Shown: positions 17,653 through 63,614 of the stretch, in pieces
Layout of the letters: each line of letters opens with the position of its first letter
Position numbering within the stretch: the first letter of the stretch is position 1
Source: Pisaster brevispinus
Taxonomy: Eukaryota > Echinodermata > Asteroidea > Forcipulatida > Asteriidae
Assembly: GCA_023634235.1 (NCBI GenBank)
Contig: JAMKCF010000006.1
Location: forward strand, 23,327,163-23,391,162
Direction of reading: 5' to 3'
DNA length: 64,000 nt
Made by a program: the position numbers and the translations under genes
The notes under the pieces: generated by a model
Seen by the model: the letters and a program-made list of their open reading frames with translations, nothing else
Told to the model about the DNA's origin: nothing
Databases searched by the model: none

Positions 17653-18334
17653 ATGGGATTAGGTTTCACACAACTCATGGCTAGAGTGTGGTTGATTTGG
17701 TTGGTACTAACATGCTGTTGCAGTGCTGCTACTGATGTACATGTAGATGTGGCTGTGTTCCTGTATGTACGTAGACGATCTATTTTCACTGTCGGACGGT
17801 TATTACCGGCCCTTGAGATTGCCCGCGAAACCATCTTGCACCGCGTAGAGAGAGGAGAGTATGCCAACTTTACTCTACGGTGGGATTTCACTCCCGATCA
17901 CTGCGGTTTCAGTGGAGTAAATGATGCAATACGGGTAGCTGCTAAACTCTACTTTGAAGGCAAAGCATTGGCTTATTTCGGACCGTCTTGTAGCCATACT
18001 TTAGTGAGTGTTGCTGATTTTGCTGCTTCGGTGAACGTACCAATATTCTCTGGCAGTGCAGGAACTCAAGAACTTTACAATAAGGACAGGTATCCAACAG
18101 CAACTCAAACTATTTATGACTCTAACACTATGGTGTCGTTCTTGAGGGAAGTGTTCTTTCTCTTTGGATGGGATTCCTATGTATTGCTGAGAAGAGGTTA
18201 CATTGCTAGCCTTATAAAGGATTCCATTGAGGATGGTCTTCGTGAGGCAGATCTTACTGGATTCGCGATTTTTGTGGAAAGCAGTGACGAGAGTTACAGA
18301 GAGTCACTTAAAAGAGCTTCTGTCATCAGCAGGA
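17653..18334 (+). CDS. V-A1: first coding exon, signal peptide plus ANF-receptor lobe
   Basis: Encodes 227 residues plus one base. Signal peptide: MARVWLIWLVLTCCCSA within a slightly longer MGLGFTQL start. The mature part begins TDVHVDVAVFLYVRRRS, then RLLPALEIARETI, the glycosylation site in YANFTLRW, a cysteine in PDHCGF and a second in FGPSCS. These two match the family's N-terminal disulfide pair. VADFAASVNVPIFSGSAGTQ, RYPTATQTIYDSNTMVSFLR and GWDSYVLL follow. This is the N-terminal part of the receptor family ligand-binding region (ANF_receptor) of guanylyl cyclases. It ends AGC AGG A|GTGAGT in phase 1. The extra HV in TDVHVDV is unique to this copy. Start chosen: ATG at 17653; a second in-frame ATG at 17677 is possible. 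ATG-TGA overlaps just upstream (17648-17653). If not spliced, translation stops about 17 residues into the intron. Confidence 0.92.
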
Positions 18335-18389
18335 GTGAGTATGGACTTTTGTTAGATTTTGTGTTTATAGGTTTGGTGTGTTCATGAAG

Positions 18390-19213
18390 TGATGGTGCTG
18401 TCTTTGAATTATCTTTTCGCTTTGTCGTTAGTAGTTCTCTTTAGAAAATGTGTTTTGTTCTATGAAACGCCTTCAACAACACTTTGTAAGTAGCACAAAT
18501 TCATTTATGACAATGTAGGGTGGATGTTTAAAACTTTTGGGAATATATATTTAAATACTACGTTGAGTGAACAAAAAATCAGAGGAAGGACGAAACCAAA
18601 TTTCAAGTTATGTTGATATTTGTAAGACGATTTACACTGAAAATCCCACCCAGTGACAAACATTCCCATTTACGCACGTTAACCGCTGCAACACTGAAAA
18701 ATGTCTGGTAATAATTATTGTGTACACATTTTATAGAAGTCTGACCACCCTTAACTATATTGTAACTGGTCGCAAAAGCTATACCGTTATTTTTAGTGGT
18801 GATAGAGAGTGCATTTCGACGGCATAAATGGTTTTCTTTTCTTCTAATGCTAATTCAACTCTTTTAATGGGGTGTACCGAAGCGTGATTGCAAAATACAA
18901 CAATTTGAGTGACCAGGTTCAACCAAACTTCTTTTTCTAAAAACGAAACCAATGCAATCCAATGAAGGGTTTACTAAACTACGTCGGCTAAGTTTATGCG
19001 ATTTTGTTCATTTTAAATTATTATTATTTTTTTCACCGATACTGAATTAGCATACTGACTCGATGACTGGGAGGGGTTGTAATAAGCGAAATCTCGTGTG
19101 GCACGAGATGTCTAAAATATTTCTTGTGATTTCAAGATACGATACCTGTTTCGTTACTGTGTAGTACGGATACCGTGAATTCTGCTTTCGTTTGGGTTTC
19201 TAGTTACATACGC
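18390..19213. other. spacer between V-A1 and psi3
   Basis: AT-rich and without exon-like sequence. The last ~100 bases before psi3 align with the flank of psi2. Confidence 0.5.
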
Positions 19214-19745
19214 CTTTCAAAATTTAGTTGAAAGTTGGAGTAATTTTGGTGGACAAATCTACCAATATTCTCACTGGTAAACGCTTATTACTAGCCCTTG
19301 AGACCGCCCTCGAAACCATCTTGTTTCACGTGGAGAGAGGCGAGTATGCCAACTTTACTGTAGGATACCCTTGTTTAAAGGTTGTAATCGATCGGGGCCA
19401 CCTTGTAACACCAATATGTAAAGTGTGGCCGACTTTGCTTCTATATTTGCTTGGATATACCGATCTTCTCAGGAAGTGCTGGGTCACATGACTTGGAAAG
19501 TAAACTAAGATATCCCACTTTGACTAATACTGTTAACAAAGTGAGTACGATGGTGTCTTTCATGAAGGGACTGTTGAAACTCTATGGTTGGGATTCCATT
19601 GTTTTTATCATTAAAGGTGTTGTTTTCAAGGCCATGCAAAGCAATCGAAAAAGGTGAACGAGAAGATGACTTACGAGTATATATATTTAATCTCTACAGT
19701 CATTTTGAACCGACTAGTTTCGAGTTTACTCTAGTTGAAGCCTAA
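19214..19745 (+). pseudogene. broken V exon psi3 (C-type)
   Basis: Begins KVGVILVDKSTNILTGKRLL (no ATG; a TTG stands at 19228), then LETALETILFHVERGEYANF as in intact copies. After YANFTVGYPC the frame is lost and a segment is deleted, including the disulfide region. It resumes at IPIFSGSAGSHDLESKLRYP (from about 19456), passes TVNKVSTMVSFMKGLLKLYG and GWDSIVF, then breaks again at about 19630. The C-terminal end (FEFTLVEA-stop) has lost the splice donor. Closest to V-C3. Confidence 0.9.
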
Positions 19746-19749
19746 AACA

Positions 19750-20950
19750 AATTATGTAAACGGTTTTATAGATCCTTCTTAAAATATATTTTGGCGAATC
19801 ATAACTTGCATTTTAAATTGCAACCAAAAATTGTCCAAAGTACATCTGTGAACTTTTTGTTTGTTTATGGTTTACCAGGAGTACAGAATCCTTATGTACA
19901 CAGATGCACTTGCAGATAGTATTGTTGAGATTGATTTGGTTCGAGTAAAACATGCTTCTCGACGCTACTAACAGTGCGTAGTGGCGTATTGCGGGTCAGG
20001 CCGAAAGGGACGAATGGTCGAGGATCGGTTACAAAAAAAGCTTAAATTAGATACTTTCCTGGTATTGTTTTTACTGCTTTCCAAAGGCATCCTATCGTGA
20101 CGTCCTGGGCTCGATTTCACGAAGCACAAAGATTCATCTAAAGTTGTGTTGACAGTATTACCATAATATAGTGATTTGTATGTGACTGTAAAAACGTAAA
20201 GGTTGTATACACACTACAACCAGGTAGAAACTAAGTCAATCCTGCAACAGCGGAAGAGGGCCTCCTGTAGGATGTGTACATATTAAACAATACATAATTA
20301 TGGGGAACCACCCGTAAAAAGTGTGACCTTGGAAACTGGCACATTTGACGGGGATAGTGGCCTGACGTTTCGACCCTGAAATTTCTTTCTTGATGTTTGG
20401 GTCACTGCCTACTTCTTGCAGTTTCTAGCTCATTATCTATCTGGAGTCGGCTCCCTGAGCTTTCAGTTTAATTTCCTACTTATTCAAGTGGTTCATGTTT
20501 TTTCTATCGGTTGAGGTCTACATGCCTACATTGGCGTTTCACATTATTAATGTAATCAAGGGTTTTGAGTAGACCCAGTAACTGGGGCGCTGTACTCCGT
20601 TTTTGAAATATTGACATCTGCGGTTGTACTAGCGCCCCAGAAAATACTTGTAACTTGTAGAGAACTATCGGAAATGGAAATTTGCTATAATTTTCCAAAT
20701 ACCCTGCCACAAAATATGCCCCCAAATGACAAGAAGACACCCCACATTTCTTGAAAATCGCCAAGCTTCTCGATATGCAACGTGCAACTGGCTTCTCAAA
20801 GATGCAACATCGGGCACTTGATTGCACTCGCGATCATTTTTATTGTGCTTCAAATTGATGACTTTTAAGTCCACAATCGGAGAAACCATCCACCACGATC
20901 GACTTCATTGGCCTCTGGGTAATATAGACGGGTGCTCTCTGCCTACCGCG
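19750..20950. other. non-coding stretch
   Basis: An ATG-initiated 107-codon minus-strand frame (20504-20827) is unrecognised and overlapped by another frame. The GGGGCGCTGTACTCC / ACTAGCGCCCCAG pair near 20582-20640 forms a short inverted repeat. No gene can be supported. Confidence 0.4.
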
Positions 20951-20954
20951 TCGT

Positions 20955-21045
20955 CGTGGTGCAGTGGTAGATCACGATCCCCAGCACTTCGCCACCCTTC
21001 CCTCTCAGGCACAGCGACGTGTGCGAAGTTCGAACGCGGGAAGCT
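20955..21045 (+). mobile_element. possible degenerate tRNA-like SINE head
   Basis: An A-box-like TGGTGCAGTGGTAGATCACG (from 20958) and a B-box-like AGTTCGAACGC (from 21029) are spaced too far apart for a tRNA, but are compatible with a decayed SINE head. Confidence 0.35.
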
Positions 21046-22353: not shown

Positions 22354-23032
22354 ATGGGATTCGATTTGACACAACTCATGGCTAGAGTGTTGTTGATTTG
22401 GTTGGCACTAACATGCTGTTGCAGTGCTGCTACTGATGTAGATGTGGCTGTGTTCCTGTTTGTACATAGACGATCTGTTTTCACTGTCGGACGGTTATTA
22501 CCGGCCCTTGAGATTGCCCGTGAAACCATCTTGCACCGCGTAGAGAGAGGAGAGTATGCCAACTTTACTCTACGGTGGGTTTTCACTCCAGATAACTGTC
22601 CTTTCTCCATTGGAGTAAATAATGCTTTACGAGTAGCTGCTAAACTGTACTTCGAACGGAAAGCATTAGCTTATTTCGGACCGTCTTGTAGCAGTTCTTT
22701 AGTGAGTGTTGCTGATTTTGCTGCTTCGGTGAATGTACCAATATTCTCTGGCAGTGCAGGAACTCAAGAACTTTACAATAAGGACAGGTATCCAACAACA
22801 ACTCAAACTATTTATGACTCAAACACTATGGTGTCGTTCTTGAGGGAAGTGTTCTTACACTTTGGATGGGATTCCTATGTACTGCTGAGAAAAGGTTACA
22901 TTGCTAGCCTTATAAAGGATTCCATTGAGGATGGTCTGCGTGAGGCAGATCTTACTGGATTCACGATTTTTGTGGAAAGCAGTGATGAGAGTTACAGAGA
23001 GTCACTTAAAAGAGCTTCTGTCATCAGCAGGA
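22354..23032 (+). CDS. V-A2: first coding exon, ANF-receptor lobe
   Basis: 226 residues plus one base, phase-1 donor GGA|GTGAGT. Signal peptide MARVLLIWLALTCCCSA. Differs from V-A1 mainly in the loop between the two cysteine positions (DNCPFSIGVNNALRV, FERKALAYF, SCSSSLVSV) and in TVGRLL-flanking residues (FLFVHRRSV). From FGPSC onward the DNA is almost identical to V-A1 and V-A4, including silent positions. This suggests gene conversion or very recent duplication of the 3' two thirds. An ATG-TGA start-stop pair overlaps the ATG (22349-22354), as in V-A1. Read-through past the donor would add a hydrophobic tail ending at a TAA at 23143-23145. Confidence 0.92.
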
Positions 23033-25152: not shown

Positions 25153-25825
25153 ATGAGAACAAATTTGACACAACTCTTGGCTAGAGTGTGGTTAATTTGG
25201 TTGCTACTGTCATGCTGTTGCAGCGCAACTACTGATGTAGATGTGGCTGTGTTCCTGTTGGCACATAGAAATTCTATTTACGATGTCACACGGTTATTAC
25301 CGGCCCTTGAAATTGCCCGCGAAACCATCTCGCACCGCGTAGAGAGAGAAGAGTATGCCAACTTTACTCTACGGTGGGTTTTCACTCCCGATCACTGCGC
25401 TTTTGGAGTTCCTGACGCAATAAGAGTAGCTGCTAAACTGTACTTTGAAGGGAAAGCATTGGCTTATTTCGGACCGTCTTGTAGCAGTTCTTTAGTGTGT
25501 GTTGCAGCTTTTGCTGCTTCGGTGAACGTACCAATATTCTCTGGCAGTGCAGGAACTCAAGCGCTTTACAATAAGGACAGGTATCCCACAGCAACTCAAA
25601 CTATTTATGACTCAAACACTATGGTGTCCTTCTTGAGGGAAGTGTTCTTACACTTTGGATGGGATTCCTATGTTTTCTTTAGAAGAGGTTTCATCGCTGA
25701 CCTGATAAAAGATTCCATTGAGAACGGTCTGCGTGAGGCAGATCTTACTGGATTCGCGATTGTCTTGGAAGACAACGATGAGAATTACCGAAAGTCACTT
25801 CAAAGCGCTTCTGTAACCAGCAGGA
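25153..25825 (+). CDS. V-A3: first coding exon, ANF-receptor lobe
   Basis: 224 residues plus one base, ending AGC AGG A|GTGAGT. It starts MRTNLTQLLARVWLIWLLLS before CCCSATTDVDVAVFL. The frame is open for 46 more codons upstream but without any ATG, so 25153 is preferred. This is the most diverged A copy: AHRNSIYDVTRLL, a shorter cysteine loop (PDHCAFGVPDAIRV), an extra cysteine in LVCVAAF, RRGFIADLIKD and a changed C-terminal acidic stretch (LEDNDENYRKSLQSAS). The odd cysteine could pair between protomers or with a constant-region cysteine; that is speculation. Confidence 0.92.
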
Positions 25826-28254: not shown

Positions 28255-28933
28255 ATGATAGGAATAAGTTTGACACAACCCATGGCTAGAGTGTGGTTGA
28301 TTTGGTTGGCACTTACATGCTGTTGCAGTGCAGCTACTGGTGTAGATGTGGCTGTGTTCCTGTATGTACGTAGACGATCTGTTTTCACTGTCGGACGGTT
28401 ATTACCGGCCCTTGAGATTGCCCGTGAAACCATCTCGCACCGCGTAGAGAGAGGAGAGTATGCCAACTTTACTCTACGGTGGGTTTTCACTCCCGATTAC
28501 TGCGGTTACAGTGGAGTAAATGATGCAATACGGGTAGCTGCTAAACTATACTTTGAAGGCAAAGCATTGGCTTATTTCGGACCGTCTTGTAGCGGTTCTT
28601 TAGTGAGTGTTGCTGATTTTGCTGCTTCGGTGAACGTACCAATATTCTCTGGCAGTGCAGGAACTCAAGAACTTTACAATAAGGACAGGTATCCCACAGC
28701 AACTCAAACCATTTATAACTCTAACACTATGGTGTCGTTCTTGAGGGAAGTGTTCTTACACTTTGGATGGGATTCCTATGTATTGCTGAGAAAAGGTTAC
28801 ATTGCTAGCCTTATAAAGGATTCCATTGAGGATGGTCTGCGTGAGGCAGATCTTACTGGATTCACGATTTTTGTGGAAAGAAGTGATGAAAGTTACCAAG
28901 ATTCACTTAAAAGAGCTTCTGTCATCAGCAGGA
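28255..28933 (+). CDS. V-A4: first coding exon, ANF-receptor lobe
   Basis: 226 residues plus one base, phase-1 donor GGA|GTGAGT. It starts MIGISLTQPMARVWLIWLAL, then CCCSAATGVDVAVFLYVRRR. The N-terminal half is closest to V-A1 (FLYVRRRS, SGVNDAIRV, EGKALAYF), while the C-terminal half is closest to V-A2 (LHFGWDSYVLLRKGYIAS, GFTIFVE), a mosaic suggesting exchange between copies. Private differences are PDYCGY, SCSGSLV, TIYNSN and VERSDESYQDSLK. No ATG-TGA pair precedes this start (CAGAATGATA). Confidence 0.92.
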
Positions 28934-30409: not shown

Positions 30410-32330
30410 TTACTTGTTTTAAAATAGTAGAATATGGTAATCCAACAGGCAAGACTATAGAAAAACATTTAAAACGATTAGCAACAAAACATCAAACTCG
30501 ACAGAGTTGTGTACAGTTTCTCTGTTTCCAAATGCTAGAAAGAATACAGCAAATTTCGCTAGAGCAATTGTTTTGAACGTAATTCTATTGTTATGTTTGA
30601 TTTTGTAAATCAACACTTCTTACAACTCTCTTTACAAACTGCTGTTAGAGAGCACTTTGGCAGTTAGCGACGTCATGATATTGCGTAATTCGCACTTTTC
30701 ACAATTCAAAAGAAACGAATGAAAATATGCTCATCATTGCTTTTTAAAAGTTAATTGGACTAATGTCGCAGTTTGGTTGGTAGTTGATGTGTGTGTGTGA
30801 TTTACAGAAGTAAAATAAATCGTCGAGATGGCTCTCCTTGCTCTTCCTTGTTATGTAGATTTACAGCGATGCTCAACGCATCCCGATAGGGGAATAATCC
30901 ATTTAAGACTCGGGCAGGTTTCAAGCTCCAATTCTTCATTGTCCAAATGTGTATAGTTATTTTGGTTGAATTTAATGGCATGGACGGTGTTTCCCACCAA
31001 CCACGTGATAGCATCTTTCTTAAGAACCATTCAGCTTTCTAGGGAGTAATAATATGCAAAAATGGCCTAGAATATTAGTACGTGCCGACGGATAAAATGC
31101 CACTCCCGAAGCACTCCATTAAGGTCCATTATTTAATAGCTGGCAAGTTTTTCGCCTGTCGGCAGCACAACTTTGAAGACAACCTTGCGAACTGCTATTG
31201 GAATCAAATAATGTGCGGTAGTTACGAGTTCAAAAAGTGAGTAAATTGCAAATGCGGGGAATTTCTCGCTCCCATCGTCCAGTGCTATTGTTCTCAATAA
31301 GAAAGAGGAAGTTGGAAGGGAAGTTGAGAGACACTATCTTGTTTTTTCGTTGACAGCTCGTCAGAAGTAAATTTTAATCTTGGACATCTCCTAGCATGAG
31401 TAACAGAAATGTGGATAAGCCTCAAGCGATTTGGAAACTTCGAGGAAAGTCCCGTGACACCGTCTTAGATCATGATAAGATCCTGTCCTTAAAGAATATG
31501 TTTTGTGCAACGTTTTGCTCGAAAATAATCTTTATCGACCCATTTCACAACGTGCAGCACACTATCATGCACATCCTTTCCACTATTTGGGGAATCAAAA
31601 TTCCAAATGTATCCGAAGGAATTGACTCCCGAATGGCAGACGGACATGTGCGTTCCGCGTCGTGCATGGTCATTAAAATCACCGTTTGCTGACGCGCAGA
31701 AATACCAGCCTGCCGTATCGATACCTCTCGTCACTCACCCCTGGTAGGGATGTACCGAAAAACAGCGCTCATTGACTCCCAAAAGTGACTACTTTTCGTG
31801 CACGCTAAGTTAAAATATTTTCGAGCGCTTGTATGGCGCTTGTATAGGACGCTTAGTACTCGCGTGTGAAAATACAATCATGTTATTGTTATTCATTTCA
31901 AATGAATCATGTTTTTACACGGTTACCTTAAACTGCATACAGTTAGACATAACATGAAATTATCAAAAGATTAAAGAAAAATGAGACGTTAGCCTACCAT
32001 TTGCTCTTTGACTTGACGCCTCTTTTGTGGGTTACCATACATGAGCGAGCGCGCAGAGTGGATCGGCCTAATTAAAATGTGCCCAGATTCTGGCACATTT
32101 TATTGATCCAATTCCAAGGGTGTTGAGCGAGCAAGTCATGCTGGGGAAAAATGGCGCGGCGAGATCGATCACCCCTGGGATAGAGGTTGCATAAATACAT
32201 ATATCGAAATACACAGCAGTTGATTATTTTATGACGTCACATCTATCCTTAGTTTGTTTGCTTTGGTAATATACAGTACTATAGAGAAAGTCTGTCTATG
32301 AGTAGCTTCAAATTCAAACCCGTTGCCTAA
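30410..32330. other. non-coding stretch with a dispersed repeat
   Basis: The segment at about 31720-31830 (GCCGTATCGATACCTCT, CCCTGGTAGGGATGTAC, GTGACTACTTT, CGTGCACGCT) has a diverged copy at 43718-43835. Open frames at 31396-31692 (+) and 31489-31734 (-) overlap each other and are unrecognised. Confidence 0.5.
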
Positions 32331-32334
32331 ATTC

Positions 32335-32512
32335 AGGTTACTGTTTTATGGTTGGGATTCGTATCTTTTTTGGAGAAAATTTTACATCGATTGTCTTAAG
32401 ACAGATTCCATTGAGAATGGTGTGAGGCAGATCTTGCTGGTTTTACGGTTTTTGTTGTAGACAATGAACAGTTGCCGAGAGTTACTTCAAAGAGCTTCTG
32501 TCATCAGCAAGA
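32335..32512 (+). pseudogene. V-exon relic psi4 (A-type, 3' third)
   Basis: TTATGGTTGGGATTCGTAT, AGATTCCATTGAGAATGGT, GAGGCAGATCTTGCTGG and AGAGCTTCTGTCATCAGCAA follow the A-type 3' end. At least two frameshifts and one in-frame stop break the frame. The donor AAGA|GTGAGTATGG is intact at 32513. It resembles V-A3 most (SIENG). Confidence 0.88.
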
Positions 32513-32519
32513 GTGAGTA

Positions 32520-34300
32520 TGGACGTTTGAAGCGTAACACTTTCGATTCTGTTCAGTTAGTTAAAAGTGTTGATAATTTCGGCATGATGAAGACATTCGC
32601 TCAATATTTTTATGTTAGGTAAAGGTTGGGAACTCCTTTCGCTTTAATGTTGTTAGATACCTAGAACGTTGCTGCATTTCTTTCTTCGTTCCACTGAACG
32701 AATAGAACTGTTTATACCAATATACTGTTTTTTAACAGCAAACCTTATTGAAGTTGTCGCACACGTAACGATATATCTTCTTACGTGTGGAGTTCCCATG
32801 TACAATATTTTACTTCAATGTGTTTAATTCCACTTTTTGCATAAAGGACCTTCTGTAGGAGATTGTTGTCTGCCTCGTAATCTCGGGAAGATCGTAAAAT
32901 ATCAACGTTGAATAAAGGCCGGTTGACAAACTGAACTGGAATGTTGTTGAATTTAATTTTGGTAACAGAAAGCCTGCGGTGTTTTAAGTGCTGGCTTATC
33001 AGGCACAAAAGAAGAAAAGGGTTAACAAGCTTCGACGGCGAGAATTTACTCGGAAGACTATCTTGTTATCTTCACGGTGCAGTTGTTATAGAGTGATGTA
33101 AAATACGTTTCTCAATCTGACAGTGTTTTCTGTCTAGAAACATTCGATTTGTCAGTACGTAGAGATTCTCTACTTGGTTTCGCTCATAAAATGGACAAGT
33201 ACATAACATTATAATTCTGAAATAATCTCCAGATGGTCACTGTATAATGAGAGAATGTTATCGGTAGTAGGACAACAGCGACTTAATCCAGTGAATGAAG
33301 CCAAATCCTACTAATTTATCCAAAATGTTAAACAAATCACTTGCCATTTTATGTGCACAGCTGTAGAGCTCAGGTCATACGCGAATGTTTGTTCGCACCA
33401 AACTTGTTTGGCACTAGAGGGCGCTGTTTCAAATCTTAGCATCTCCTGCAAGATCCTAAAGCTATAAGAACTGTCATTAAACGATTATTGTACGTTGGGG
33501 GAGTTACAACACAATGATACCATCCGGCGTACAACCGTTATGTTGTAAGGCAAACATGATTATGTGCATGACGTTTACGTGTTGAATGCATGGACTAAAA
33601 TCGGAGCATTGACAGGGGCAGGTGGTAACGGGGGCTATCGGAGTGCTCGACGCCCTTCCCCAAAACAAGGACGACAACTATGAATAGAGAATCAAATGCA
33701 CAAGAGGAAAGAAAACCTTATTAGTGGGAGACTAATTAAACAAACATAAAGGTTGGCTTAGTGATTTTTCCCCTTCCTTTCACCTCTGTGGACCCTGGTT
33801 CGAATCCCAAGCCGGAGTCTTGTATGTGGATTGGGTTTCCAGCCCCTACCCGATTTTGTTGGCTAGACGTTTTCCCTCCCATATCTGAAACTGACATTTC
33901 ATAATCATCATAAGTATCTCCAGGCCTATGGGTGACTGTGCTAGTCGCTTTCTTTTTCGATAATAAATATAGTCCGTGTTCACGCATAAGCTTGTTGAAG
34001 ATTTGTATTGTATTATTTTACATAAGAATACACTACTAAAAATCTACATGAAATTTTCCTTGTAGATGTAATTAATTCCCCACAAAAGGCGAGTACTTCA
34101 AAGAAATGAAGCAAGTTATACTAAGATAAGCTTCATGTGTATTAACATGTTAGCGTGTAAAGGCGTTCCGCTATGACATGCCTATAGTTGTGATCTCACG
34201 CAGTTGCTGTGCAGGCGACATTCTTCTTGTCTTGATGTAAAGTCGTAAGTTTTCTGTTAAGAGAGAGACGCGCTTCTTCTATTCCCTGCTTATATTACAT
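32520..34300. other. non-coding stretch with SINE-like remnant
   Basis: Around 33750-33860 a GGTTGGCTTAGTG...CTGGTTCGAATCCCAAGCC segment looks like a tRNA-derived SINE head with a good B box. The rest shows no gene. Confidence 0.45.
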
Positions 34301-34307
34301 ATATATT

Positions 34308-34437
34308 GCTGGAGATACCATCGTACGAAGTGGATAGCAGCAAGTATGCAAACTTTACTCTTACGTGGATTCGTTTACAATCTGGTTGCAGCTGGGCAGT
34401 TAAGATGGTGATGGGAGCTGCTGCGCGTCTGTACGTC
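34308..34437 (+). pseudogene. V-exon relic psi5 (B-type fragment)
   Basis: ATTGCTGGAGATACCATCGT, AGTATGCAAACTTTACTCTT, TCTGGTTGCAGCTGGGCAGT and GGTGATGGGAGCTGCTGCGC match 35065-35200 of V-B1. One base is lost at ATCGTACGAAGTGG, shifting the frame. Similarity ends abruptly at CGTCTGTACGTCGTGTAA. Confidence 0.9.
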
Positions 34438-34899
34438 GTGTAAACGTTTTTTAATCCAAGGTTAAACGATGTGAATACAAATGGTCATGCTGGGGAAAAC
34501 GTCAGTAAAAAAGTCAAAACGTGTATTATATCCGGTAGATCGGGGCACGTTCGATGTTGGTACATGTAGTCTCTGTAAATAGGAAAGGTTAAAAAGGCGT
34601 ATTTAAAAAAATACTAGGCACGAAGGCTGACGTTTTCGGAGGTTCGACGTCCATATTTTCAAGTTCCGTCTTTAAAAATGAACATTAAATTGTTCGTGTT
34701 TTTATTTAAAAGGCAAGTCAACAACGTATGAAAGTAGCTAGAATTTATCTGTCACGTACGTATACACATTCAAAGCCCTTAGTTGTAATATAGTTCAGGC
34801 CCAACGTAAATGAAATGACTCTACACTGTAGCACCGAAGACGGTAAATTGGGCTGGCTTAAAATTTGAGCGATCAACGTTAACCAGCTTGCCCTTAAAA

Positions 34900-35581
34900 A
34901 TGAAAGGTAGAGAGACTGGTTATGTAATTCAGTGCATTATTGTGGTTTATTTGTTTTTGCCAATGCTCTTTTGCCTTCAAACCGATGTAGAAGTGGCAGT
35001 CTTTTTGTCAAGAAAATATCCAGTAGGAAATTTATTTGAAGAACCACGACTTCTTCCTGCCATAGAGGTTGCTGGAGATACCATCTCACGAAGAGTGGAT
35101 AGCGGCGAGTATGCAAACTTTACTCTCAAGTGGATTCATTCACAAACTGGATGCAGCTGGTCAGTACAGACCGTTATGGGAGCTGCCGCACGTCTGTACT
35201 TTGAAAACCATGTAATGGCGTTTTTTGGACCTGCTTGTAGCAACGGCATTCTAGGCATTGGTGACTTTGCTGCTTCGATGAATCTACCAATGTTCTCAGG
35301 TAGCGCTTATATACATGAATTGGACAATAAGGACAGGTACCCAACACTAACTCAGACTACTTACAAATCAAGTACGATGGTATCTTTCCTGAAGAGGCTA
35401 TTTGAGTTGTTTGGCTGGAATTCTTATTTCTTGCTCGGTAAGGGTTATGGATTCACTGTAACGAGATCCTCCATTGAAGATAATCTTCGTGATGCAGGAA
35501 TTCGAGGCTTTACTCTTGAGGTACACGACACCGAGACGGATTTTGAGATTCCTCTGAAAGAAGCTTCTACTATCGGCCGAA
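34900..35581 (+). CDS. V-B1: first coding exon, ANF-receptor lobe
   Basis: 227 residues plus one base, donor CGAA|GTGAGT, phase 1. Signal peptide MKGRETGYVIQCIIVVYLFL plus PMLFCLQ, then TDVEVAVFLSRKYPVG. Compared with the A type it has a longer first loop (NLFEEPRLLPAIEVAGDTIS), YANFTLKWIHSQTGCSW, a basic-to-neutral change in RLYFENHVMAFF, GPACSNGILGIGDF and PMFSGSAYIHELDN. It is the only intact B copy, with relics psi5 upstream and psi6 downstream. The start was chosen at the first ATG (AAAAATGAAA). In-frame read-through past the donor ends after about 16 residues. Confidence 0.92.
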
Positions 35582-37324: not shown

Positions 37325-38000
37325 ATGGAGAGTGTAAGACAGCAGTTACGAAAAGTGATACTTTTGATTTTGACTTTGGCGACATGTTCTGGTTATGAAA
37401 CAATAACTGTAGATGTTGTAGTGTTTCTATTCAGAGGTGACCATATATACGGAGATACCCGTATCTTACCTGCCCTTGAGATTGCTCGTGAAACCATCTC
37501 ACACCGTGTGGAGAGAGGCGAGTATGCCAACTTCACACTACGGTGGGTTTACTCGGCGAATGGTTGTAGTCGTGGACGAGTTGTCTACGCCTCCGGGATC
37601 GCTGCGCAATTTTACTTTGAACGCAATGTAGTGGCTTATTTCGGTCCATCGTGCAGCAAAGACTTGCAAAGTGTGGCCGACTTTGCTGCTTCGATGAATA
37701 TACCAATCTTCTCAGGAAGTGCTGGGTCACATGAATTGGAAAACAAAGGAAGATATCCTACTTTGACTAACACTGTTAACAAAGTGAGTACGATGGTGTC
37801 TTTCATGAAGAAACTGTTGGAGTTCTATGGTTGGGATTCCATTGTTTTGATCATTAAAGGTATTCTATTTACAAATCCCGGTAACGCAATCGAAGATGGT
37901 TTACGAGAGAATGGAGTACGAGCACAATCTTTCTTCTTGAGTGGGAATGATGATAGCAAGTTTGGGTCAACTCTTCAACAAGCCGCATCAATTAGCCAAA
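37325..38000 (+). CDS. V-C1: first coding exon, ANF-receptor lobe
   Basis: 225 residues plus one base, donor CAAA|GTAAGT, phase 1. MESVRQQLRKVILLILTLAT begins the signal peptide. The mature part starts TVDVVVFLFRGDHIYGDTRI and passes YANFTLRWVYSANGCSRGRV, FERNVVAYFGPSCSKDLQ, SAGSHELENKGRYPTLTNTV and FYGWDSIVLIIKG. It ends ENGVRAQSFFLSGNDDSKFG and SISQ. C copies differ from A copies at almost every loop position but keep both cysteines, the NFT site and PIFSGSAG. Read-through of the donor hits TAG after two codons, so an unspliced product would end almost at the exon edge. Thirty bases on, a half exon of another subfamily (psi6) is fused in. Confidence 0.92.
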
Positions 38001-38029: not shown

Positions 38030-38214
38030 AATTGAAGCTTCATTTGGCTGGAACTCTTATTTTTTGCTCGGTAAGGGTTATGGATTCACTGTAACGAGAT
38101 CCTCCATTGAAGATAATCTTCGTGATGCAGGAATACAAGGCTTTAAGCTTGAGGTACACGACACAGAGACGGATTTTGAGATTCCTCTTAAAAACGTTTC
38201 TACTATCGGCCCAA
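38030..38214 (+). pseudogene. V half-exon psi6 (B-type 3' part)
   Basis: An open frame corresponds to FGWNSYFLLGKGYGFTVTRS to the exon end of V-B1, with substitutions (IQGFKLEV, PLKNVSTIGPS) and a kept donor CAA|GTGAGT at 38215. The 5' two thirds are missing: the segment starts 30 bases after the V-C1 donor. It comes from the 35400-36150 duplication. Its frame remains open, so use as an extra alternative exon is not excluded, but the AG before CTTCATTTGG has a poor pyrimidine tract. Confidence 0.85.
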
Positions 38215-38219
38215 GTGAG

Positions 38220-41000: not shown

Positions 41001-41676
41001 ATGGAGAGTGTTAGACAGCAGTTACGAAAAGTGATAGTTTTGATTTTGACTTTGGCAACATGTTCTTGTAATGAAACAGTAACTGTAGATGTTGTAGTAG
41101 TTCTGTTCAAAGGTGACTATATATACGGAGATACCCGTATCTTACCTGCCCTTGAGATTGCTCGTGAAACCATCTCACACCGTGTGGAGAGAGGCGAGTA
41201 TGCCAACTTCACTCTACGGTGGGTTTACTCGGCGGATGGTTGTAGTCGTGGACGAGTTGTCTACGCCTCCGGGATCGCTGCGCAATTTTACTTTGAACGG
41301 ACCGTAGTGGCGTATTTCGGTCCATCGTGCAGCAATGACTTGCAAAGTGTGGCTGACTTTGCTGCTTCGATGAATATACCAATCTTCTCAGGAAGTGCTG
41401 GGTCACATGAATTGGAAAACAAAGGAAGATATCCTACTTTGACTAACACTGTTAACAAAGTGAGTACGATGGTGTCTTTCATGAAGAAACTGTTGGAGTT
41501 CTATGGTTGGGATTCCATTGTTTTGATCATTAAAGGTATTCTATTTACAAATCCCGGTAACGCAATCGAAGATGGTTTACGAGAAAATGGAGTACGAGCA
41601 CAATCTTTCTTCTTGAGTTGGAATGATGATAGCAAGTTTGAGTCAACTCTTCAACAAGCCGCATCAATTAGCCAGA
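41001..41676 (+). CDS. V-C2: first coding exon, ANF-receptor lobe
   Basis: 225 residues plus one base, donor CAGA|GTAAGT, phase 1. Close copy of V-C1. Replacements are few: VIVLILTLATCSCNETVTVD, VVLFKGDYIYGD, SADGCS, ERTVVAYF, SCSNDLQ and SWNDDSKFES. The 3' half (from SVADFAASMN) is nearly identical in DNA to V-C1. The ATG at 41001 is chosen over an upstream non-ATG frame because MESVRQQLRKV is common to all three C copies. A TAG follows two codons after the donor. Confidence 0.92.
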
Positions 41677-44802: not shown

Positions 44803-45478
44803 ATGGAGAGTGTAAGACAGCAGTTACGAAAAGTGATACTTTTGATTGTGACTTTGGCGACATGTTCTTGTAATGAAACAGTAACTGTAGATGTTGTAGT
44901 GATTCTGACTAGAAGTGACTATATATACGGAGACACCCGTATCTTACCTGCCCTTGAGATTGCTCGTGAAACCATCTCACACCGTGTGGAGAGAGGCGAG
45001 TATGCCAATTTCACTCTACGGTGGGTTTACTCGGCGGATGGTTGTAGTCATGGACGAGTTGTCTACGCCTCCGGGATCGCTGCGCAATTTTACTTTGAAC
45101 GGAATGTAGTGGCGTATTTCGGTCCACCGTGCAGCGGCGACTTGCAAAGTGTGGCCGACTTTGCTGCTTCGATGAATGTACCAATCTTCTCAGGGAGTGC
45201 TGGGTCACATGAATTGGAAAGTAAACTAAGATACCCTACTGTGACTAATACTGTTAACAAAGTGAGTACGATGGTGTCTTTCATGATGAAACTGTTGGAG
45301 TTCTATGGTTGGGATTCCATTGTGTTGATCATTAAAGGTTTCATATTTACAGTCCCTGGTAAAGCTATCGAAGATGATTTTCGAGAAAATGAAATACGAA
45401 CACAATCTTTCTTATTGAGTTGGAATGATGATAGCAAGTTTGAGTCAACTCTTCAACAAGCCGCATCAATTAGCCAAA
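44803..45478 (+). CDS. V-C3: first coding exon, ANF-receptor lobe
   Basis: 225 residues plus one base, donor CAAA|GTAAGT, phase 1. C-type with private changes: VVILTRSDYIYGD, DGCSHGRV, FGPPCSGDL, NVPIFSG, ELESKLRYPTVTNTV, MMKLLEFYGWDS, KGFIFTVPGKAIEDDFRENE and IRTQSFLLSWND. Changes cluster in the first loop after VVV, the cysteine loops and the 3' fifth. The core (RILPALEIARETISHRVERG) is invariant. Psi3 at 19.2 kb shares SKLRYP and other V-C3 features, so this subtype was once also near the 5' end of the cluster. Confidence 0.92.
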
Positions 45479-48201: not shown

Positions 48202-48871
48202 ATGGGAGGCCCTGTAACAGTCATATTAACTGTTTTATTGTTCGGGTTGCACACAACCTGTTCTGGGAATGTTGCAACCAACTTAACTATGTTTGTTTTC
48301 ACGTACAGACACCCATTCAATTCGATCTATTCAGAAAGCCGTATATTACCAGCCCTTGAGATTGCTCGTGAAACTATCTCGCATCGTGTGGAGAGAGGCG
48401 AGTATGCCAACTTCACTCTACAGTGGGTTTACTCACTACATGGTTGCAGTCACGGCGTACAGCATGCTGTAGGTGAAGCAGCTGAGCTGTATTTTAAACA
48501 GGCCGTAGTTGCTTATATTGGACCACCTTGCAGTTACCCCATCTCAAGTGTAGCTGACTTCGCAGCTGCAAAGGGTATACCAATTTTCTCCGGCAGTGCT
48601 GGTTCCAGGGAATTGGATGATAAAGTAAGGTATCCAACATTGACCCAAACTGTGTATAAACCAAGCACTATGGCATCTTTCTTGAGGGAATTGTTTTCTG
48701 TGTACGGGTGGAATTCCTGTGTTTTGATTCAATTTGGGCATTTCTTCATTCTACCTGCTACTAATATTGAAGCTGCTTTTTATGAAGCTGGAGTTAGAGT
48801 GTTTGATTTTCACTTAAAGAACGTCCATGACTTGGATGTTATATTGGAAGAAGCTTCTTTGAACAGCCGAA
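48202..48871 (+). CDS. V-D1: first coding exon, ANF-receptor lobe
   Basis: 223 residues plus one base, donor CGAA|GTAAGT, phase 1. ATG at 48202 (TTGGAATGGGA, good context) gives the signal peptide MGGPVTVILTVLLFGLHTTC. A weaker in-frame ATG at 48157 would add 15 residues (MCCLWSNWIIHLNVG), also conserved in V-D2. Mature part: SGNVATNLTMFVFTYRHPFN, SIYSESRILPALEIARETIS, YANFTLQWVYSLHGCSHG, YFKQAVVAYIGPPCSYPI and GIPIFSGSAGSREL, then RYPTLTQTVYKPSTMASFLR and YGWNSCVLIQFG. D exons carry a second N-glycosylation site (NLT/NLS) in the first strand and an extra cysteine (SCVL), shared with V-E1. Confidence 0.92.
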
Positions 48872-51802: not shown

Positions 51803-52472
51803 ATGGGAGGCCATGTAACAGTCCTATTGACTGTTTTGTTGTTCGGGTTGCACACAACCTGTTCTGGGAATGTTGCAACCAACTTATCTATGTTTGTTTT
51901 CACGTACAGACACTCATTCAATTCAATCTATTCAGAGAGCCGTATATTACCAGCCCTTGAGATTGCTCGTGAAACCATCTCGCGTCGTGTGGAGAGAGGC
52001 GAGTATGCCAACTTCACTCTACAGTGGGTTTACTCACTACATGGTTGCAGTCACGGCGTACAGCATGCTGTAGGTGAAGCAGCTGAGCTGTATTTTAAAC
52101 AGGCCGTAGTTGCTTATATTGGACCACCTTGCAGTTACCCCATCTCAAGTGTAGCTGACTTCGCAGCTGCAAAGGGTATACCAATTTTCTCCGGCAGTGC
52201 TGGTTCCAGGGAATTGGATGATAAAGTAAGGTATCCAACATTGACCCAAACTGTGTATAAACCAAGCACTATGGCATCTTTCTTGAGGGAATTGTTTTCT
52301 GCGTACGGGTGGAATTCCTGTGTTTTGATTCAGTTTGGGCATTTCTTCATTCGACCTGCTATTAATATTGAAGCTGCTTTTTATGAAGCTGGAGTTAGAG
52401 TGTTTGATTCTCACTTAAAGAACGTCCATGACTTGGATATTATATTGGAAGAAGCTTCTTTGACCAGCCGAA
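51803..52472 (+). CDS. V-D2: first coding exon, ANF-receptor lobe
   Basis: 223 residues plus one base, donor CGAA|GTAAGT, phase 1. Near-duplicate of V-D1. By eye the central ~315 bases (51985-52301, against 48384-48700) are identical. Differences sit at the two ends: GGHVTVLL, NLSMF, RHSF and SRRV on one side; FSAYG, IRPAIN, VFDSHL, LDIIL and LTSRS on the other. Most of these differences change the amino acid. An upstream in-frame ATG at 51758 exists. The unit duplicated with it includes the 3' flank to about 52720. Confidence 0.92.
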
Positions 52473-53920: not shown

Positions 53921-54581
53921 ATGGAAGGTTTACAAGCACTGTTGACAGTCTTATCGTTTGCCCTGACGCTGTCTTGTGTTGTAGCAACCGATGTGAATGT
54001 AGTTGTATTTTTGTTTAGACGTGAGTCCGTTTATGGTGACACTCGTTTATTACCGGCCCTTGAGATTGCCCGTGAAACCATTTGGCACCGCGTAGAGAGA
54101 GGAGAGTATGCCAACTTTACTCTGGGTTGGGATTACTCAGCAGAAGGTTGTGGACATGGTGTTCAGTTTGCCGTCAGAGAAGCGGCTCAATTGGTCTTTG
54201 AGAAAGATGTCGTGGCTTTTTTCGGACCTTCTTGCAGTTCCAGTATGCAGAGTGTTGCCGACTTCGCAGCACCCATGAATATTCCCATTTTTTCGGGAAG
54301 TGCTGGTGCAGTGGAGCTGGATAACAAAAAACGATACCAGACACTTACTCAGACTGTGCATAGACCACGAACCATGGTTTACTTCGTCGTGGAACTCTTT
54401 CTTCGCTATGGGTGGGATTCTTGCGTCTTATTGCGAAAGGGTCATCTCTTCTTACGCGTAGGTGTCACTATGGAAGAGGTTCTTCGTGAAGCTAATATAA
54501 GACCCTATTCAATTTACCCGGCAAGTTCGAGTGAAGAAGAGTTTACATCTGCCTTGAAAGAAGCATCTTTGAATGGCCGAA
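53921..54581 (+). CDS. V-E1: first coding exon, ANF-receptor lobe
   Basis: 220 residues plus one base, donor CGAA|GTGAGT, phase 1. The preferred start is the ATG of MEGLQALLTVLSFALTLSCV, a clean signal peptide. In-frame ATGs at 53726 and 53822 would add a hydrophilic leader (EEKPRRKYDNL) that would hide the signal peptide. Mature: TDVNVVVFLFRRESVYGDTR, YANFTLGWDYSAEGCGHGVQ, LVFEKDVVAFFGPSCSSSMQ, APMNIPIFSGSAGAVELD, RYQTLTQTVHRPRTMVYFVV and YGWDSCVLLRKGHLFLRVGV. It ends SSSEEEFTSALKEASLNGR. It is the V exon nearest the shared exons (4.4 kb) and the only member of its type. Confidence 0.92.
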
Positions 54582-59499: not shown

Positions 59500-59655
59500 G
59501 GCGACGAGAATGACGCCAAACTTAAAATCGCTTACAAAGCGCTGATGACGATCCGACTCTTTGAGCCAACAACTGATGAGTACATCAATTTCCAAAGGGA
59601 GATGAACCGTCGAATGCTGGAGTCGTATAACTTTACCCCTGAAGCTGGAGATGAG
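59500..59655 (+). CDS. shared exon K2: ectodomain
   Basis: 52 codons, phase 0 both ends (AATAAAG before, GATGAG|GTTAGC after): GDENDAKLKIAYKALMTIRL, FEPTTDEYINFQREMNRRML and YNFTPEAGDE. The AYKALMTI and EY..F...M pattern fits the receptor guanylyl cyclase ectodomain. One NFT glycosylation site. Confidence 0.92.
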
Positions 59656-59896: not shown

Positions 59897-60032
59897 GCCA
59901 ACTTCTTTGCTACATCTTTTCATGATGCTTTAATCTTATATTCTCTGGCCATTAATGAGACACTACATGAAGGAGGAGACATCCGGGATGGTCTGGCTCT
60001 GAGAGACAAGATGTGGAATCGCACATTTCAAG
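59897..60032 (+). CDS. shared exon K3: ectodomain
   Basis: Phase 0 in, phase 1 out (CATTTCAAG|GTAAAT). ANFFATSFHDALILYSLAIN, ETLHEGGDIRDGLALRDKMW and NRTFQ. The FHDALILYALAINETL-type helix is a strong family signature. NET and NRT are glycosylation sites. Confidence 0.95.
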
Positions 60033-60281: not shown

Positions 60282-60376
60282 GTATTGCCGGTGCAGTTTC
60301 TATCACAGAAAAGGGCGACCGAGTTGCAGTGTATTCTCTATGGGATATGACAGACACTGAGAACGGTGTGTTCGAG
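60282..60376 (+). CDS. shared exon K4: ectodomain
   Basis: Phase 1 in, phase 0 out. G-IAGAVSITEKGDRVAVYSLW, DMTDTENGVFE, matching the G..G.V.I...GDR...YSLWDM block of the family. Confidence 0.93.
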
Positions 60377-60519: not shown

Positions 60520-60661
60520 GTGGTTGCTGACTATTATGGAGTGTCCAATACAATCCAATGGTATCAAGATATCGTATGGCATGGGAGAGAAGACGGCAGT
60601 GCACCACCTGACACTCCACGCTGCGGATTTTACAACGAGAATCCAGAATGTCAAGACGCAG
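60520..60661 (+). CDS. shared exon K5: membrane-proximal ectodomain
   Basis: Phase 0 in, phase 1 out. VVADYYGVSNTIQWYQDIVW, HGREDGSAPPDTPRCGFYNE, NPECQDA. The PxDxPxCGFxNExPxC motif is the conserved juxtamembrane disulfide of natriuretic-peptide-type receptors, which is involved in signalling across the membrane. Confidence 0.95.
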
Positions 60662-60854: not shown

Positions 60855-60939
60855 GTAATGACACCTTGGTCCTGGTATCATCCATCCTAGCTGCTTGTGT
60901 GGTGATCGCCTCGGCATGTGGCATGCTTTTTGTCTACAG
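60855..60939 (+). CDS. shared exon K6: transmembrane segment
   Basis: Phase 1 in, phase 2 out. NDTLVLVSSILAACVVIASA, CGMLFVY: a single ~23-residue hydrophobic helix starting directly after the juxtamembrane motif. The following K7 is basic (RKMK), as expected on the cytoplasmic side. Confidence 0.93.
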
Positions 60940-61702: not shown

Positions 61703-61765
61703 ACCGGCTCTATGACAGATGTAAACAACCAACGACAGATATTTACCAAAGTCGCTCAGTATGAG
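61703..61765 (+). CDS. shared exon K8: kinase-homology domain
   Basis: 21 codons, phase 0 both ends: TGSMTDVNNQRQIFTKVAQY then E. This corresponds to the glycine-rich-loop neighbourhood and the F..VA.Y strand. Confidence 0.85.
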
Positions 61766-61837
61766 GTAAGCAAATCTTAAACCTGTTTGGGTAAAAGGCT
61801 TATCGAATTCACATTTTTATAGTTAACTGATTATTTT

Positions 61838-61962: not shown

Positions 61963-62299
61963 TGAATTTATTGTCTGTTTGTTATGTCTTATCCTGATTT
62001 ATGATTACTCAACGACTTCGACACAGTTACCCATGACGTTTTGATGCATGAATAAGAATACTATTGAGTGCTGAATAAATTTAAAATGGTTTAAAAGGTA
62101 TTTCTCGAATAGAAAACACTTTGTCCCATATAACTCTGCTGCTATGTATACTTAAGTTTCTCAAAAGTCTTCGAAAACATAAATAGAACTGATTCTTGTA
62201 CCTATAATTTCCAATACATTTCTATCACCACTTTTATGAATGAGAAGAATGAAGTAGAAGAAGAAGCAGTAGTAGCAGCGACATCAGCAGGGAGGGTGT

Positions 62300-62515
62300 G
62301 ATAGTGTTTTGGTCTGTTGGTGTCATGGTCCCGTGCTGTATAGTTGATTTTGAGTTTCATGTCCCTTCATCTGTGAGAGTATAGTAGTGTTATGGTCGCA
62401 TCTTGGTCTGTTGGTGTCCTCGTCCCGTGCTCTATGGTCGTTTTTGAGTTTCCTGTCCCTTCATCTGGGAAAGTACAGTATTGTTTTGGTCGCATCTTGG
62501 TCTGTTGATCTTATG
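62300..62515. repeat. about 105-bp intronic tandem repeat, two copies
   Basis: TTGGTCTGTTGGTGTC.T.GT, CCCGTGCT.TAT.GT, TTTTGAGTTTC.TGTCCCTT and CATCTG recur at about 62310 and 62402, with a third partial copy at 62498. Confidence 0.85.
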
Positions 62516-62588
62516 GTTGGTTGGTCAGTTTTTTCTTGAGTTTTTTCCAATCTGCCATAATCATCTTTTCTGTGTTTACTTCCAATAG

Positions 62589-62666
62589 GGTCGAATGGTG
62601 GCTCTTAAACAGATAAATACAACCAAGATAGACCTGAATAGAAAAGTACTACTGGAGTTTCGTAAT
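62589..62666 (+). CDS. shared exon K9: kinase-homology domain, VALK strand
   Basis: 26 codons, phase 0. GRMVALKQINTTKIDLNRKV, LLEFRN. VALK aligns with the ATP-site VAIK lysine, which is kept here. The EFRN then leads to the alpha-C region in K10. Confidence 0.92.
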
Positions 62667-62892
62667 GTGAGTACTGTTGTATTGCTCGGTGTGCAGTTGC
62701 TTCACACACTGAAATTTATATGAACTGAACTTATTCTTCGAGTATCCTCTTTTGTAGATTAACATCAGTTGATTCACTGGAAAGGAGAATCGGAAAACTT
62801 TCTAACATGATTTTCTCTCACACATCTTGTTCTTACTCTTGTTGAGACTGCCATTTTTAAAATACATCTTTCTACTTGAATTTGATTGACAG

Positions 62893-63006
62893 TTACGTCG
62901 TCTTGAGCATAGCAACCTTGTCCGATTCATTGGTGCATGTATTGATGGGTATGATGAAACCAAACACGTGATCATCACCGAGTATTGCCCCAAAGGAAGT
63001 CTACAG
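62893..63006 (+). CDS. shared exon K10: kinase-homology domain
   Basis: 38 codons, phase 0. LRRLEHSNLVRFIGACIDGY, DETKHVIITEYCPKGSLQ. The RxxxHxNLVxFIGACID and ITEYCPxGSLxD blocks are diagnostic of receptor guanylyl cyclases. Confidence 0.96.
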
Positions 63007-63221
63007 GTTAGAGAAATAATATTCAAATATTAAATGCGTTATAAATAAAAACCGACCCTCAAGAAGATTGTTGCCTGGATGAAAGGACACAATAATGAAT
63101 AATTCATTAATTTGGGACTTTGGATGGTTTCATTGCCCAATCACTTTAAAAGACCTTTCATAGGGCAGTACGAACATTCTGTGTCTCTTTATTCTTAATG
63201 GTTGACTTTCTAACTCCTCAG

Positions 63222-63293
63222 GATATTCTAGAAAATGACGCATTGAAGTTGGATTGGGATTTCAAGAGCTCCCTCCTCATCGATATCATCAAG
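63222..63293 (+). CDS. shared exon K11: kinase-homology domain
   Basis: 24 codons, phase 0. DILENDALKLDWDFKSSLLI, DIIK. D(I/V)LEN..L.LDW.F..SL..DI. is the family consensus. Confidence 0.96.
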
Positions 63294-63451
63294 GTAATAA
63301 CGATGGTTTGAATTGTCATGTGCCATCTTTAGTCGAGTTGGTCAAGGGGTGCTTATGGTGTGTGTAATTTAAGGCCGAGTATACCATATTTCAATTGATA
63401 TTTTTAATCAATAGGCCTAACTCGACACTCTCGATTGTTTCATTCATGTAG

Positions 63452-63614
63452 GGATTGAGTTTTCTTCATCACAGTGAGCTTGGTGTTCATGGTAGAATGC
63501 GCTCATCTAACTGCGTAGTGGACACCCGTTTTGTTGTCAAACTGACCGACTTTGGACTTCATGCTTTTAGAGACACTTCATCTGAGAACAACGACAGTCA
63601 GACTAAGATGAAAA
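63452..63614 (+). CDS. shared exon K12: pseudokinase catalytic-loop region
   Basis: Phase 0 in, phase 1 out (AAAA|GTAAGT). [40 protein letters not shown], then [14 protein letters not shown]. The kinase HRDLK loop is replaced by HGRMRSSN, lacking the catalytic Asp, while the DFG is kept. That combination is characteristic of receptor guanylyl cyclase kinase-homology domains, which regulate but do not phosphorylate. The remaining kinase-homology domain, the dimerisation helix and the cyclase domain are not in the window. Confidence 0.96.

What the first reader, a model, noticed from the sequence alone, without database searches (positions are those of the whole stretch)
17653..63614. Cluster of eleven alternative first exons feeding one receptor guanylyl cyclase
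Eleven intact exons, each with start codon, signal peptide and the N-terminal ligand-binding lobe, precede a single set of shared exons for the rest of a receptor guanylyl cyclase. This is the gene layout of clustered protocadherins or UGT1, here giving one cell-surface cyclase up to eleven ligand-binding faces. I know of no described receptor guanylyl cyclase with this layout. In echinoderms such receptors bind sperm-activating peptides, so a diversified chemoattractant or chemosensory receptor is a reasonable guess, but it is a guess.
Basis: partly seen in the sequence, partly recalled or inferred. Interest (0 to 1): 0.96.

Follow-up and report, generated by a model that had tools for sequence, protein, structure and literature searches.

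The report
Sea-star receptor with eleven swappable heads
Eleven intact tandem copies of the exon that begins a hormone-type receptor lie in front of one shared set of downstream exons in DNA that is likely from a sea star, so this one gene is predicted to make up to eleven versions of the receptor, each of which would sense a different signal.

Summary
Eleven open exons (V1-V11, 17653-54581) each carry an ATG, a hydrophobic leader, the N-terminal half of an ANF_receptor domain and a phase-1 donor at the same codon. One set of twelve in-phase exons (K1-K12, 59020-63614) follows. No second K copy was found; five decayed V relics were. The window ends inside the kinase-homology domain, so the cyclase is seen only in relatives (closest: Asterias rubens, K 93%, V11 80%). 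Between V groups dN/dS is 0.14-0.39 where computable, as expected of old exons under purifying selection. The strongest support is comparative: six pairs of database proteins (bat star, sea urchin, sea cucumber, hemichordate, two butterflies) share the downstream part and swap the N-terminal lobe at this same boundary; in two the boundary residue is V or I, as a split codon predicts. So small versions of the layout already sit in public gene models; eight paper searches listed no report of it. No transcripts were available, and a search with V4 found no protein closer than 57%. I read it as a variable-first-exon receptor guanylyl cyclase that would diversify ligand binding.

The parts
17653..18334 (+). 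V1, candidate first exon (group A)
   Evidence: ORF with ATG, leader and phase-1 donor GCAGGA|GTGAGT; ANF_receptor 9e-13
22354..23032 (+). V2, candidate first exon (group A)
   Evidence: ATG to phase-1 donor; V profile hit
25153..25825 (+). V3, candidate first exon (group A)
   Evidence: ATG to phase-1 donor; ANF_receptor 2.3e-14
28255..28933 (+). V4, candidate first exon (group A)
   Evidence: ATG to phase-1 donor; V profile hit
34900..35581 (+). V5, candidate first exon (group B)
   Evidence: ATG to phase-1 donor; ANF_receptor 3.3e-14
37325..38000 (+). V6, candidate first exon (group C)
   Evidence: ATG to phase-1 donor; V profile hit
41001..41676 (+). V7, candidate first exon (group C)
   Evidence: ATG to phase-1 donor; V profile hit
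44803..45478 (+). V8, candidate first exon (group C)
   Evidence: ATG to phase-1 donor; V profile hit
48202..48871 (+). V9, candidate first exon (group D)
   Evidence: ATG to phase-1 donor; V profile hit
51803..52472 (+). V10, candidate first exon (group D)
   Evidence: ATG to phase-1 donor; V profile hit
53921..54581 (+). V11, candidate first exon (group E), nearest to K1; groups with the V part of Asterias rubens P0001
   Evidence: ATG to phase-1 donor; ANF_receptor 1.3e-17; tree support 100/99 with P0001
59020..59165 (+). K1, first shared exon, ectodomain
   Evidence: acceptor ttgttttcag|TT, phase 1 in, phase 0 out
59500..59655 (+). K2, ectodomain
   Evidence: in-phase splice sites
59897..60032 (+). 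K3, ectodomain
   Evidence: in-phase splice sites
60282..60376 (+). K4, ectodomain
   Evidence: in-phase splice sites
60520..60661 (+). K5, ectodomain with the juxtamembrane Cys pair
   Evidence: in-phase splice sites; its two Cys align with two Cys of rat NPR1
60855..60939 (+). K6, transmembrane segment
   Evidence: helix 450-484 in the model of relative P0001
61399..61513 (+). K7, cytoplasmic linker to kinase-homology domain
   Evidence: in-phase splice sites
61703..61765 (+). K8, start of kinase-homology region
   Evidence: in-phase splice sites
62589..62666 (+). K9, kinase-homology domain
   Evidence: in-phase splice sites
62893..63006 (+). K10, kinase-homology domain
   Evidence: in-phase splice sites
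63222..63293 (+). K11, kinase-homology domain
   Evidence: in-phase splice sites
63452..63614 (+). K12, kinase-homology domain; last shared exon in the window
   Evidence: PK_Tyr_Ser-Thr 1.8e-23 on the spliced protein
13268..13788 (+). V relic r1, with stops and frameshifts
   Evidence: tblastn E 6e-17
19234..19742 (+). V relic r2, group C-like, with stops and frameshifts
   Evidence: tblastn E 4e-34
32311..32544 (+). V relic r3, 3' part, group A-like
   Evidence: tblastn E 4e-12
34177..34458 (+). V relic r4, 5' part, V5-like
   Evidence: tblastn E 2e-13
38043..38255 (+). V relic r5, 3' part, V5-like; the DNA copy runs 38043-38527 at 81% to 35410-35904

Best explanation
This is likely a receptor guanylyl cyclase gene of the natriuretic-peptide-receptor type from an asteriid sea star, in which eleven tandem copies of exon 1, each with its own start codon and a predicted leader, are predicted to be used as alternative first exons and spliced one at a time to a single set of shared exons. 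Each V exon encodes the leader and about the first 207 mature residues of the receptor (rat NPR1 numbering), the part that holds the natriuretic-peptide contacts of human NPR-A in a docking study. Inferred mechanism: transcription would start just upstream of a chosen V exon, and its phase-1 donor would join the K1 acceptor. Downstream V exons would be skipped because they lack an acceptor of their own. All receptors would then share the rest of the ectodomain, the membrane span, the kinase-homology domain and, outside the window, the cyclase. The array likely grew by birth, death and exon-restricted homogenisation of V exons, and would let one cGMP-making receptor respond to several ligands, most likely peptides.
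For: 11 of 11 V exons are open, with phase-1 donors matched to K1. There is a single K set, next profile hit E = 3.2. Best acceptor scores within 150 bases upstream of V exons are no better than in random windows (10 of 11 at or below 1.9, V10 3.4; random median 0.6, 90th percentile 4.1; median for K exons 3.4). Among the same-species pairs compared, 6 pairs have both a V part and a practically identical K part, and 6 of 6 break exactly at this boundary; 2 of the 6 show a V/I difference at the predicted split codon. Between groups dN/dS is 0.14-0.39 at dS of 1.25 or more wherever it could be computed. Sites aligned to natriuretic-peptide contacts vary more than the rest (mean entropy 1.43 vs 0.92 bits, permutation p 0.003; one exon per group 1.32 vs 0.89, p 0.01). 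The V part differs more from Asterias rubens than K does (80% vs 93%).
Against: No transcript was available. One search (V4 region) found only P0001, at 57%, so no database protein found shows use of a V1-V4-type exon; the one near relative uses a V11-type exon, and its match to every other V is 57% or less. No shared upstream motif exceeded chance (best 9 of 11; random sets of 11 reached 9 or more in 55 of 60), and a TATA-like word lies within 200 bases of only 4 of 11, so separate promoters are not shown. Counting tests do not show positive selection (mature part pN/pS 0.52; highest segment 1.36, p 0.65). Three of the 12 V parts in the six pairs are short and start without a leader (P0002, P0016, P0017). 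The same docking tables place a few NPR-B and NPR-C contacts beyond the V part (residues 338-365). The cyclase domain is outside the window. Ligands are unknown.
Confidence: 0.82

Rival explanations
1. Only V11 is the working first exon; V1-V10 are duplicated exons that are rarely or never spliced to K1 and are on the way to becoming relics.
For: V11 is nearest to K1 and is the only V that groups closely with a protein found; five relics show that V exons do decay; one search found no V4-type protein.
Against: Ten unused exons with saturated dS between groups would not be expected all to keep an open frame, a leader and a phase-1 donor with between-group dN/dS of 0.14-0.39. Gene models of bat star, sea urchin, sea cucumber, a hemichordate and two butterflies each show two V segments.
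Confidence: 0.08
2. The V exons are mutually exclusive internal cassettes behind one common upstream promoter and leader exon, rather than first exons with their own starts.
For: No promoter motif shared by all V exons was found; an acceptor more than 150 bases upstream of the ATG, and a small leader exon, were not excluded.
Against: Acceptor-like scores upstream of V exons are at chance level (weights recalled, not trained here); each V has its own ATG and leader; 5 of 11 have an in-frame stop with at most 3 codons between it and that ATG.
Confidence: 0.08
3. Assembly artefact: tandem complete genes whose K exons were collapsed or lost in assembly.
Against: The sequence between V exons holds diverged DNA and V relics but no K fragment that the profile detects; flanks of V exons differ, so they are not collapsed copies; other species show the same V swap.
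Confidence: 0.02

Closest known systems
Natriuretic peptide receptor-type receptor guanylyl cyclases (GC-A/NPR1)
   Same: ANF_receptor ectodomain, juxtamembrane Cys pair, kinase-homology domain; the model of relative P0001 fits the rat GC-A ectodomain (1dp4 chain C) with TM 0.88 normalised by target length.
   Different: One first exon in the vertebrate genes (recalled); here eleven intact copies.
Predicted receptor guanylyl cyclase isoforms of Patiria miniata X2/X3, Apostichopus japonicus X3/X7, Strongylocentrotus purpuratus (P0013/P0016), Glandiceps talaboti X2/X3, Vanessa cardui X1/X2, Pararge aegeria X2/X3
   Same: Shared downstream protein with the N-terminal lobe swapped at the same boundary.
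   Different: Two V segments seen per gene among cluster representatives, against eleven here; database gene models whose transcript support I could not see; their genome layout was not readable here.
UGT1 and protocadherin alpha/gamma variable-first-exon clusters
   Same: Tandem homologous first exons, one constant set, birth-and-death with relics (PMC1885805, passages seen).
   Different: Enzyme or adhesion protein; that paper calls the variable/constant organisation of Ugt1, Gcnt2 and Ugt2a vertebrate-specific; here a cGMP-producing type of receptor whose split falls inside the ligand-binding domain.
Chelicerate sDscam with tandem 5' cassettes
   Same: Variable 5' cassettes, in-frame stop before each ATG, separate transcription starts (PMC4835542, passages seen).
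   Different: Cassettes of two or four exons, adhesion molecule.
C. elegans gcy-28
   Same: A receptor guanylyl cyclase with isoforms .c and .d and separate promoters (PMC9249223, passages seen).
   Different: Few isoforms, no exon array of this size known to me; that the isoforms differ in the ectodomain is recalled, not checked.

Membership tests
Receptor guanylyl cyclase, natriuretic-receptor type | ANF_receptor ligand-binding ectodomain | tested here: met
   PF01094 E 3.7e-48 on the spliced V11+K protein; rat NPR1 1dp4_A E 3.4e-54
Receptor guanylyl cyclase, natriuretic-receptor type | Kinase-homology domain after a single membrane span | tested here: met
   PF07714 1.8e-23 and PF00069 2.3e-18, partial because the window ends; the membrane span was read from K6 by eye and from a helix in the P0001 model
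Receptor guanylyl cyclase, natriuretic-receptor type | C-terminal class III guanylyl cyclase domain | not testable with these tools
   Beyond 64000; PF00211 is present in the closest relative P0001; the window's own assembly could not be searched
Variable-first-exon cluster (UGT1, protocadherin, sDscam kind) | Tandem homologous first exons, each with its own start codon | tested here: met
   11 of 11 carry an ATG with a leader; that they are first exons in mRNA is inferred
Variable-first-exon cluster (UGT1, protocadherin, sDscam kind) | One downstream constant set, compatible in phase | tested here: met
   11 of 11 donors in phase 1; single K set
Variable-first-exon cluster (UGT1, protocadherin, sDscam kind) | A promoter before each variable exon | tested here: inconclusive
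   No acceptor signal above chance, but no shared upstream motif above chance either
Variable-first-exon cluster (UGT1, protocadherin, sDscam kind) | Transcripts joining individual variable exons to the constant set | not testable with these tools
   No transcripts of this species; database gene models of six other species break at the same boundary
Variable-first-exon cluster (UGT1, protocadherin, sDscam kind) | Birth-and-death evolution with relics | tested here: met
   Five relic loci; five V groups

The most novel reading that the evidence does not exclude
A single sea-star guanylyl cyclase locus acts as a chemoreceptor repertoire: eleven alternative first exons give eleven ligand-binding heads, chosen cell by cell, which pair in the receptor dimer into up to 66 combinations that all report through one cGMP output. 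The same first-exon split has been used repeatedly across bilaterian animals to diversify this receptor family.
Probability: 0.3. Interest if true: 0.93.

Novelty: new variant of a known kind. Interest (0 to 1): 0.8.

Why it matters
Receptor guanylyl cyclases are, as far as I know, described as diversifying by duplication of whole genes. Here the ligand-binding half alone is multiplied while the signalling half stays single, as in protocadherins and UGT1, which would turn one hormone-type receptor into a panel of sensors with one output. The matching swap in echinoderms, a hemichordate and butterflies suggests that this exon boundary is a general switch point, and I saw no remark on it in the listings and passages of my paper searches. 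It gives a directly testable route to orphan peptide ligands in sea stars, where a guanylyl cyclase is the receptor for an egg peptide (PMC8431315, passages seen).

Tried and rejected
Collapsed tandem genes: rejected, since no K fragment was detected between V exons. Chance ORFs: rejected. A shared promoter element like that of protocadherins: an 8-mer scan of 350 bases upstream gave at most 9 of 11, no better than random sets. Positive selection: segment-wise counts on four disjoint pairs gave no ratio significantly above 1. Gene conversion: within groups, fourfold sites differ by 2-15% (10 pairs), while BLAST-alignable flanks (8 pairs tested) differ by 11-32%, or do not align; this suggests exon-restricted homogenisation but was not tested formally. 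A conserved tract (alignment columns 55-84) has fewer fourfold differences between groups (57 of 126 vs 255 of 408 elsewhere; pairs not independent); conversion or constraint, undecided. Pfam on four other window ORFs gave nothing. A bacterial promoter scan is not informative for animal DNA. Contact residues come from docking tables in PMC9699598 (passages seen); the first run held one residue added from memory, and repeats it without that one; two residues named only in a figure legend there (77 and 175) were left out, and 22 of the 29 used could be placed in the alignment.

Paper searches on the layout or on receptor guanylyl cyclases: (served other questions); none listed a receptor guanylyl cyclase with an array of first exons. 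I saw the listings, and passages of nine papers. The library holds only open-licence papers.
Full report
What is there. The window is animal DNA (39% G+C). Eleven V exons lie on the + strand between 17653 and 54581, each open from an ATG through a hydrophobic leader (mean hydropathy of the best 10 residues 2.4-3.0, 11 of 11) to a phase-1 donor GT(A/G)AGT at the same codon. They code for 220-227 residues and match the N-terminal half of PF01094 in the four tested (V1, V3, V5, V11; E 9e-13 to 1.3e-17). Twelve K exons, 59020-63614, splice in frame behind them. The joined V11+K protein carries ANF_receptor and kinase-homology domains, and its ectodomain matches rat NPR1 with E 3.4e-54. The V/K boundary falls at rat NPR1 residue 207/208. 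The window ends in the kinase-homology domain, so the cyclase is seen only in relatives.

One K set, many V. A K profile built from relatives ranks the 12 K-exon ORFs first and nothing else follows (next E 3.2; weakest true exons K6 0.026 and K8 0.14); a V profile finds the 11 exons and five decayed loci (detail).

Origin. The closest protein is a 1033-residue Asterias rubens receptor (P0001): K 93%, V11 80%, other V at most 57%. A tree puts its V part with V11 (100/99). The window is thus likely from another asteriid sea star or a near relative.

Age and constraint. The V exons fall in five groups (V1-4, V5, V6-8, V9-10, V11). Between groups dS is 1.25 or higher, or not computable (6 pairs), and dN/dS is 0.14-0.39; within groups it is 0.31-0.74. 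Exon sequence within groups is much more alike than the flanks: V9/V10 fourfold sites differ by 2% while adjacent flanks differ by 11-17%, and the flanks of V6/V7 hardly align although their fourfold sites differ by 8%. That fits homogenisation confined to the exon.

First exons. A position-weight score for 3' splice sites (general weights from memory) is no better in the 150 bases upstream of V exons (10 of 11 at or below 1.9, V10 3.4) than in random windows (median 0.6, 90th percentile 4.1), while K exons have best values of 0.1-6.5, median 3.4. Five of 11 V exons have an in-frame stop with at most 3 codons between it and the ATG. No common promoter element was found, and TATA-like words lie upstream of 4 of 11.

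Relatives. Searches gave 107 proteins. In one search I compared the 18 same-species pairs among 27 named ones: 11 have K parts 53-82% alike (paralogues), one (Asterias amurensis P0003/P0007, K 98.8%) lacks a V part in one member and says nothing, and 6 have K parts of 99.6% or more with V parts only 23-43% alike. A scan of all pairs of the 107 for a shared C-terminal part of 500 residues or more gave 5 of these 6 and 3 pairs of metagenomic cyclases that match over their whole length; the sixth, Glandiceps talaboti, has a 3-residue length difference that this scan misses. In 6 of 6 the proteins are alike from the K1 boundary on (apart from that indel and one substitution in the sea urchin pair) and differ before it: Patiria miniata X2/X3, Strongylocentrotus purpuratus P0013/P0016, Apostichopus japonicus X3/X7, Glandiceps talaboti X2/X3, Vanessa cardui X1/X2 and Pararge aegeria X2/X3. 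In the sea urchin and hemichordate pairs the residue at the junction is V in one form and I in the other, as expected if a phase-1 codon is completed by G or A from the V exon. These are database gene models; I could not see their read support, and three of the 12 V parts (P0002, P0016, P0017) begin without a leader. P0001 stands for six sequences clustered at 90% identity, so isoforms with other V parts could be hidden in it.

Function. In docking tables for human NPR-A the natriuretic-peptide contacts seen lie at residues 59-189 (PMC9699598, passages seen), all inside the V-coded part; the same tables give a few NPR-B and NPR-C contacts at 338-365, in the K part. Sites aligned to the NPR-A contacts vary more among V exons than other sites (1.43 vs 0.92 bits, p 0.003; from residue 55 on p 0.007; with one exon per group p 0.01 and 0.02). 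The alignment is gappy near residues 140-190, so this is suggestive. No positive selection was detected by counting. Starfish sperm use a guanylyl cyclase as receptor for asterosap peptides (PMC8431315, passages seen), and in crown-of-thorns starfish an atrial natriuretic peptide receptor is raised in female sensory tentacles (PMC9759900, passages seen). Both roles remain possible; neither is shown for this locus.

Verdict. The best reading is a variable-first-exon cluster in a receptor guanylyl cyclase, one that would work like protocadherin or UGT1, with splicing of V1-V10 still unproven. The layout in small form is already visible in public gene models of other animals, which makes it more credible and less unique; the eleven-fold array is the new part.

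Noticed in passing
9944-10236: A 32-base unit repeated 9.1 times at 99% matches; its end overlaps a 192-codon open frame on the minus strand (10212-10787) with no Pfam match.
   Followed up: partly
35410-35904 and 38043-38527: The 3' end of V5 with its downstream flank has an 81% copy just after V6, so partial duplications carry exon pieces between groups.
   Followed up: partly
54041-54130 in V11 and the matching stretch of the other V exons (V alignment columns 55-84): A tract nearly identical in protein across groups with fewer fourfold differences than the rest (57 of 126 vs 255 of 408); cross-group conversion or a constraint on the DNA itself.
   Followed up: partly
61840-61960: In the K8-K9 intron, two arms repeat in opposite orientation around a stretch that resembles a tRNA T-arm (GGATTTGAACC), like a short mobile element (read by eye).
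   Followed up: no
5486-6342: Minus-strand open frames that look by eye like reverse-transcriptase remnants; no Pfam match at E 0.1.
   Followed up: partly
54949-55107 and 55681-55742: A TTTA run of about 40 copies and a CAG run of about 21 copies in the V11-K1 intron.
   Followed up: no
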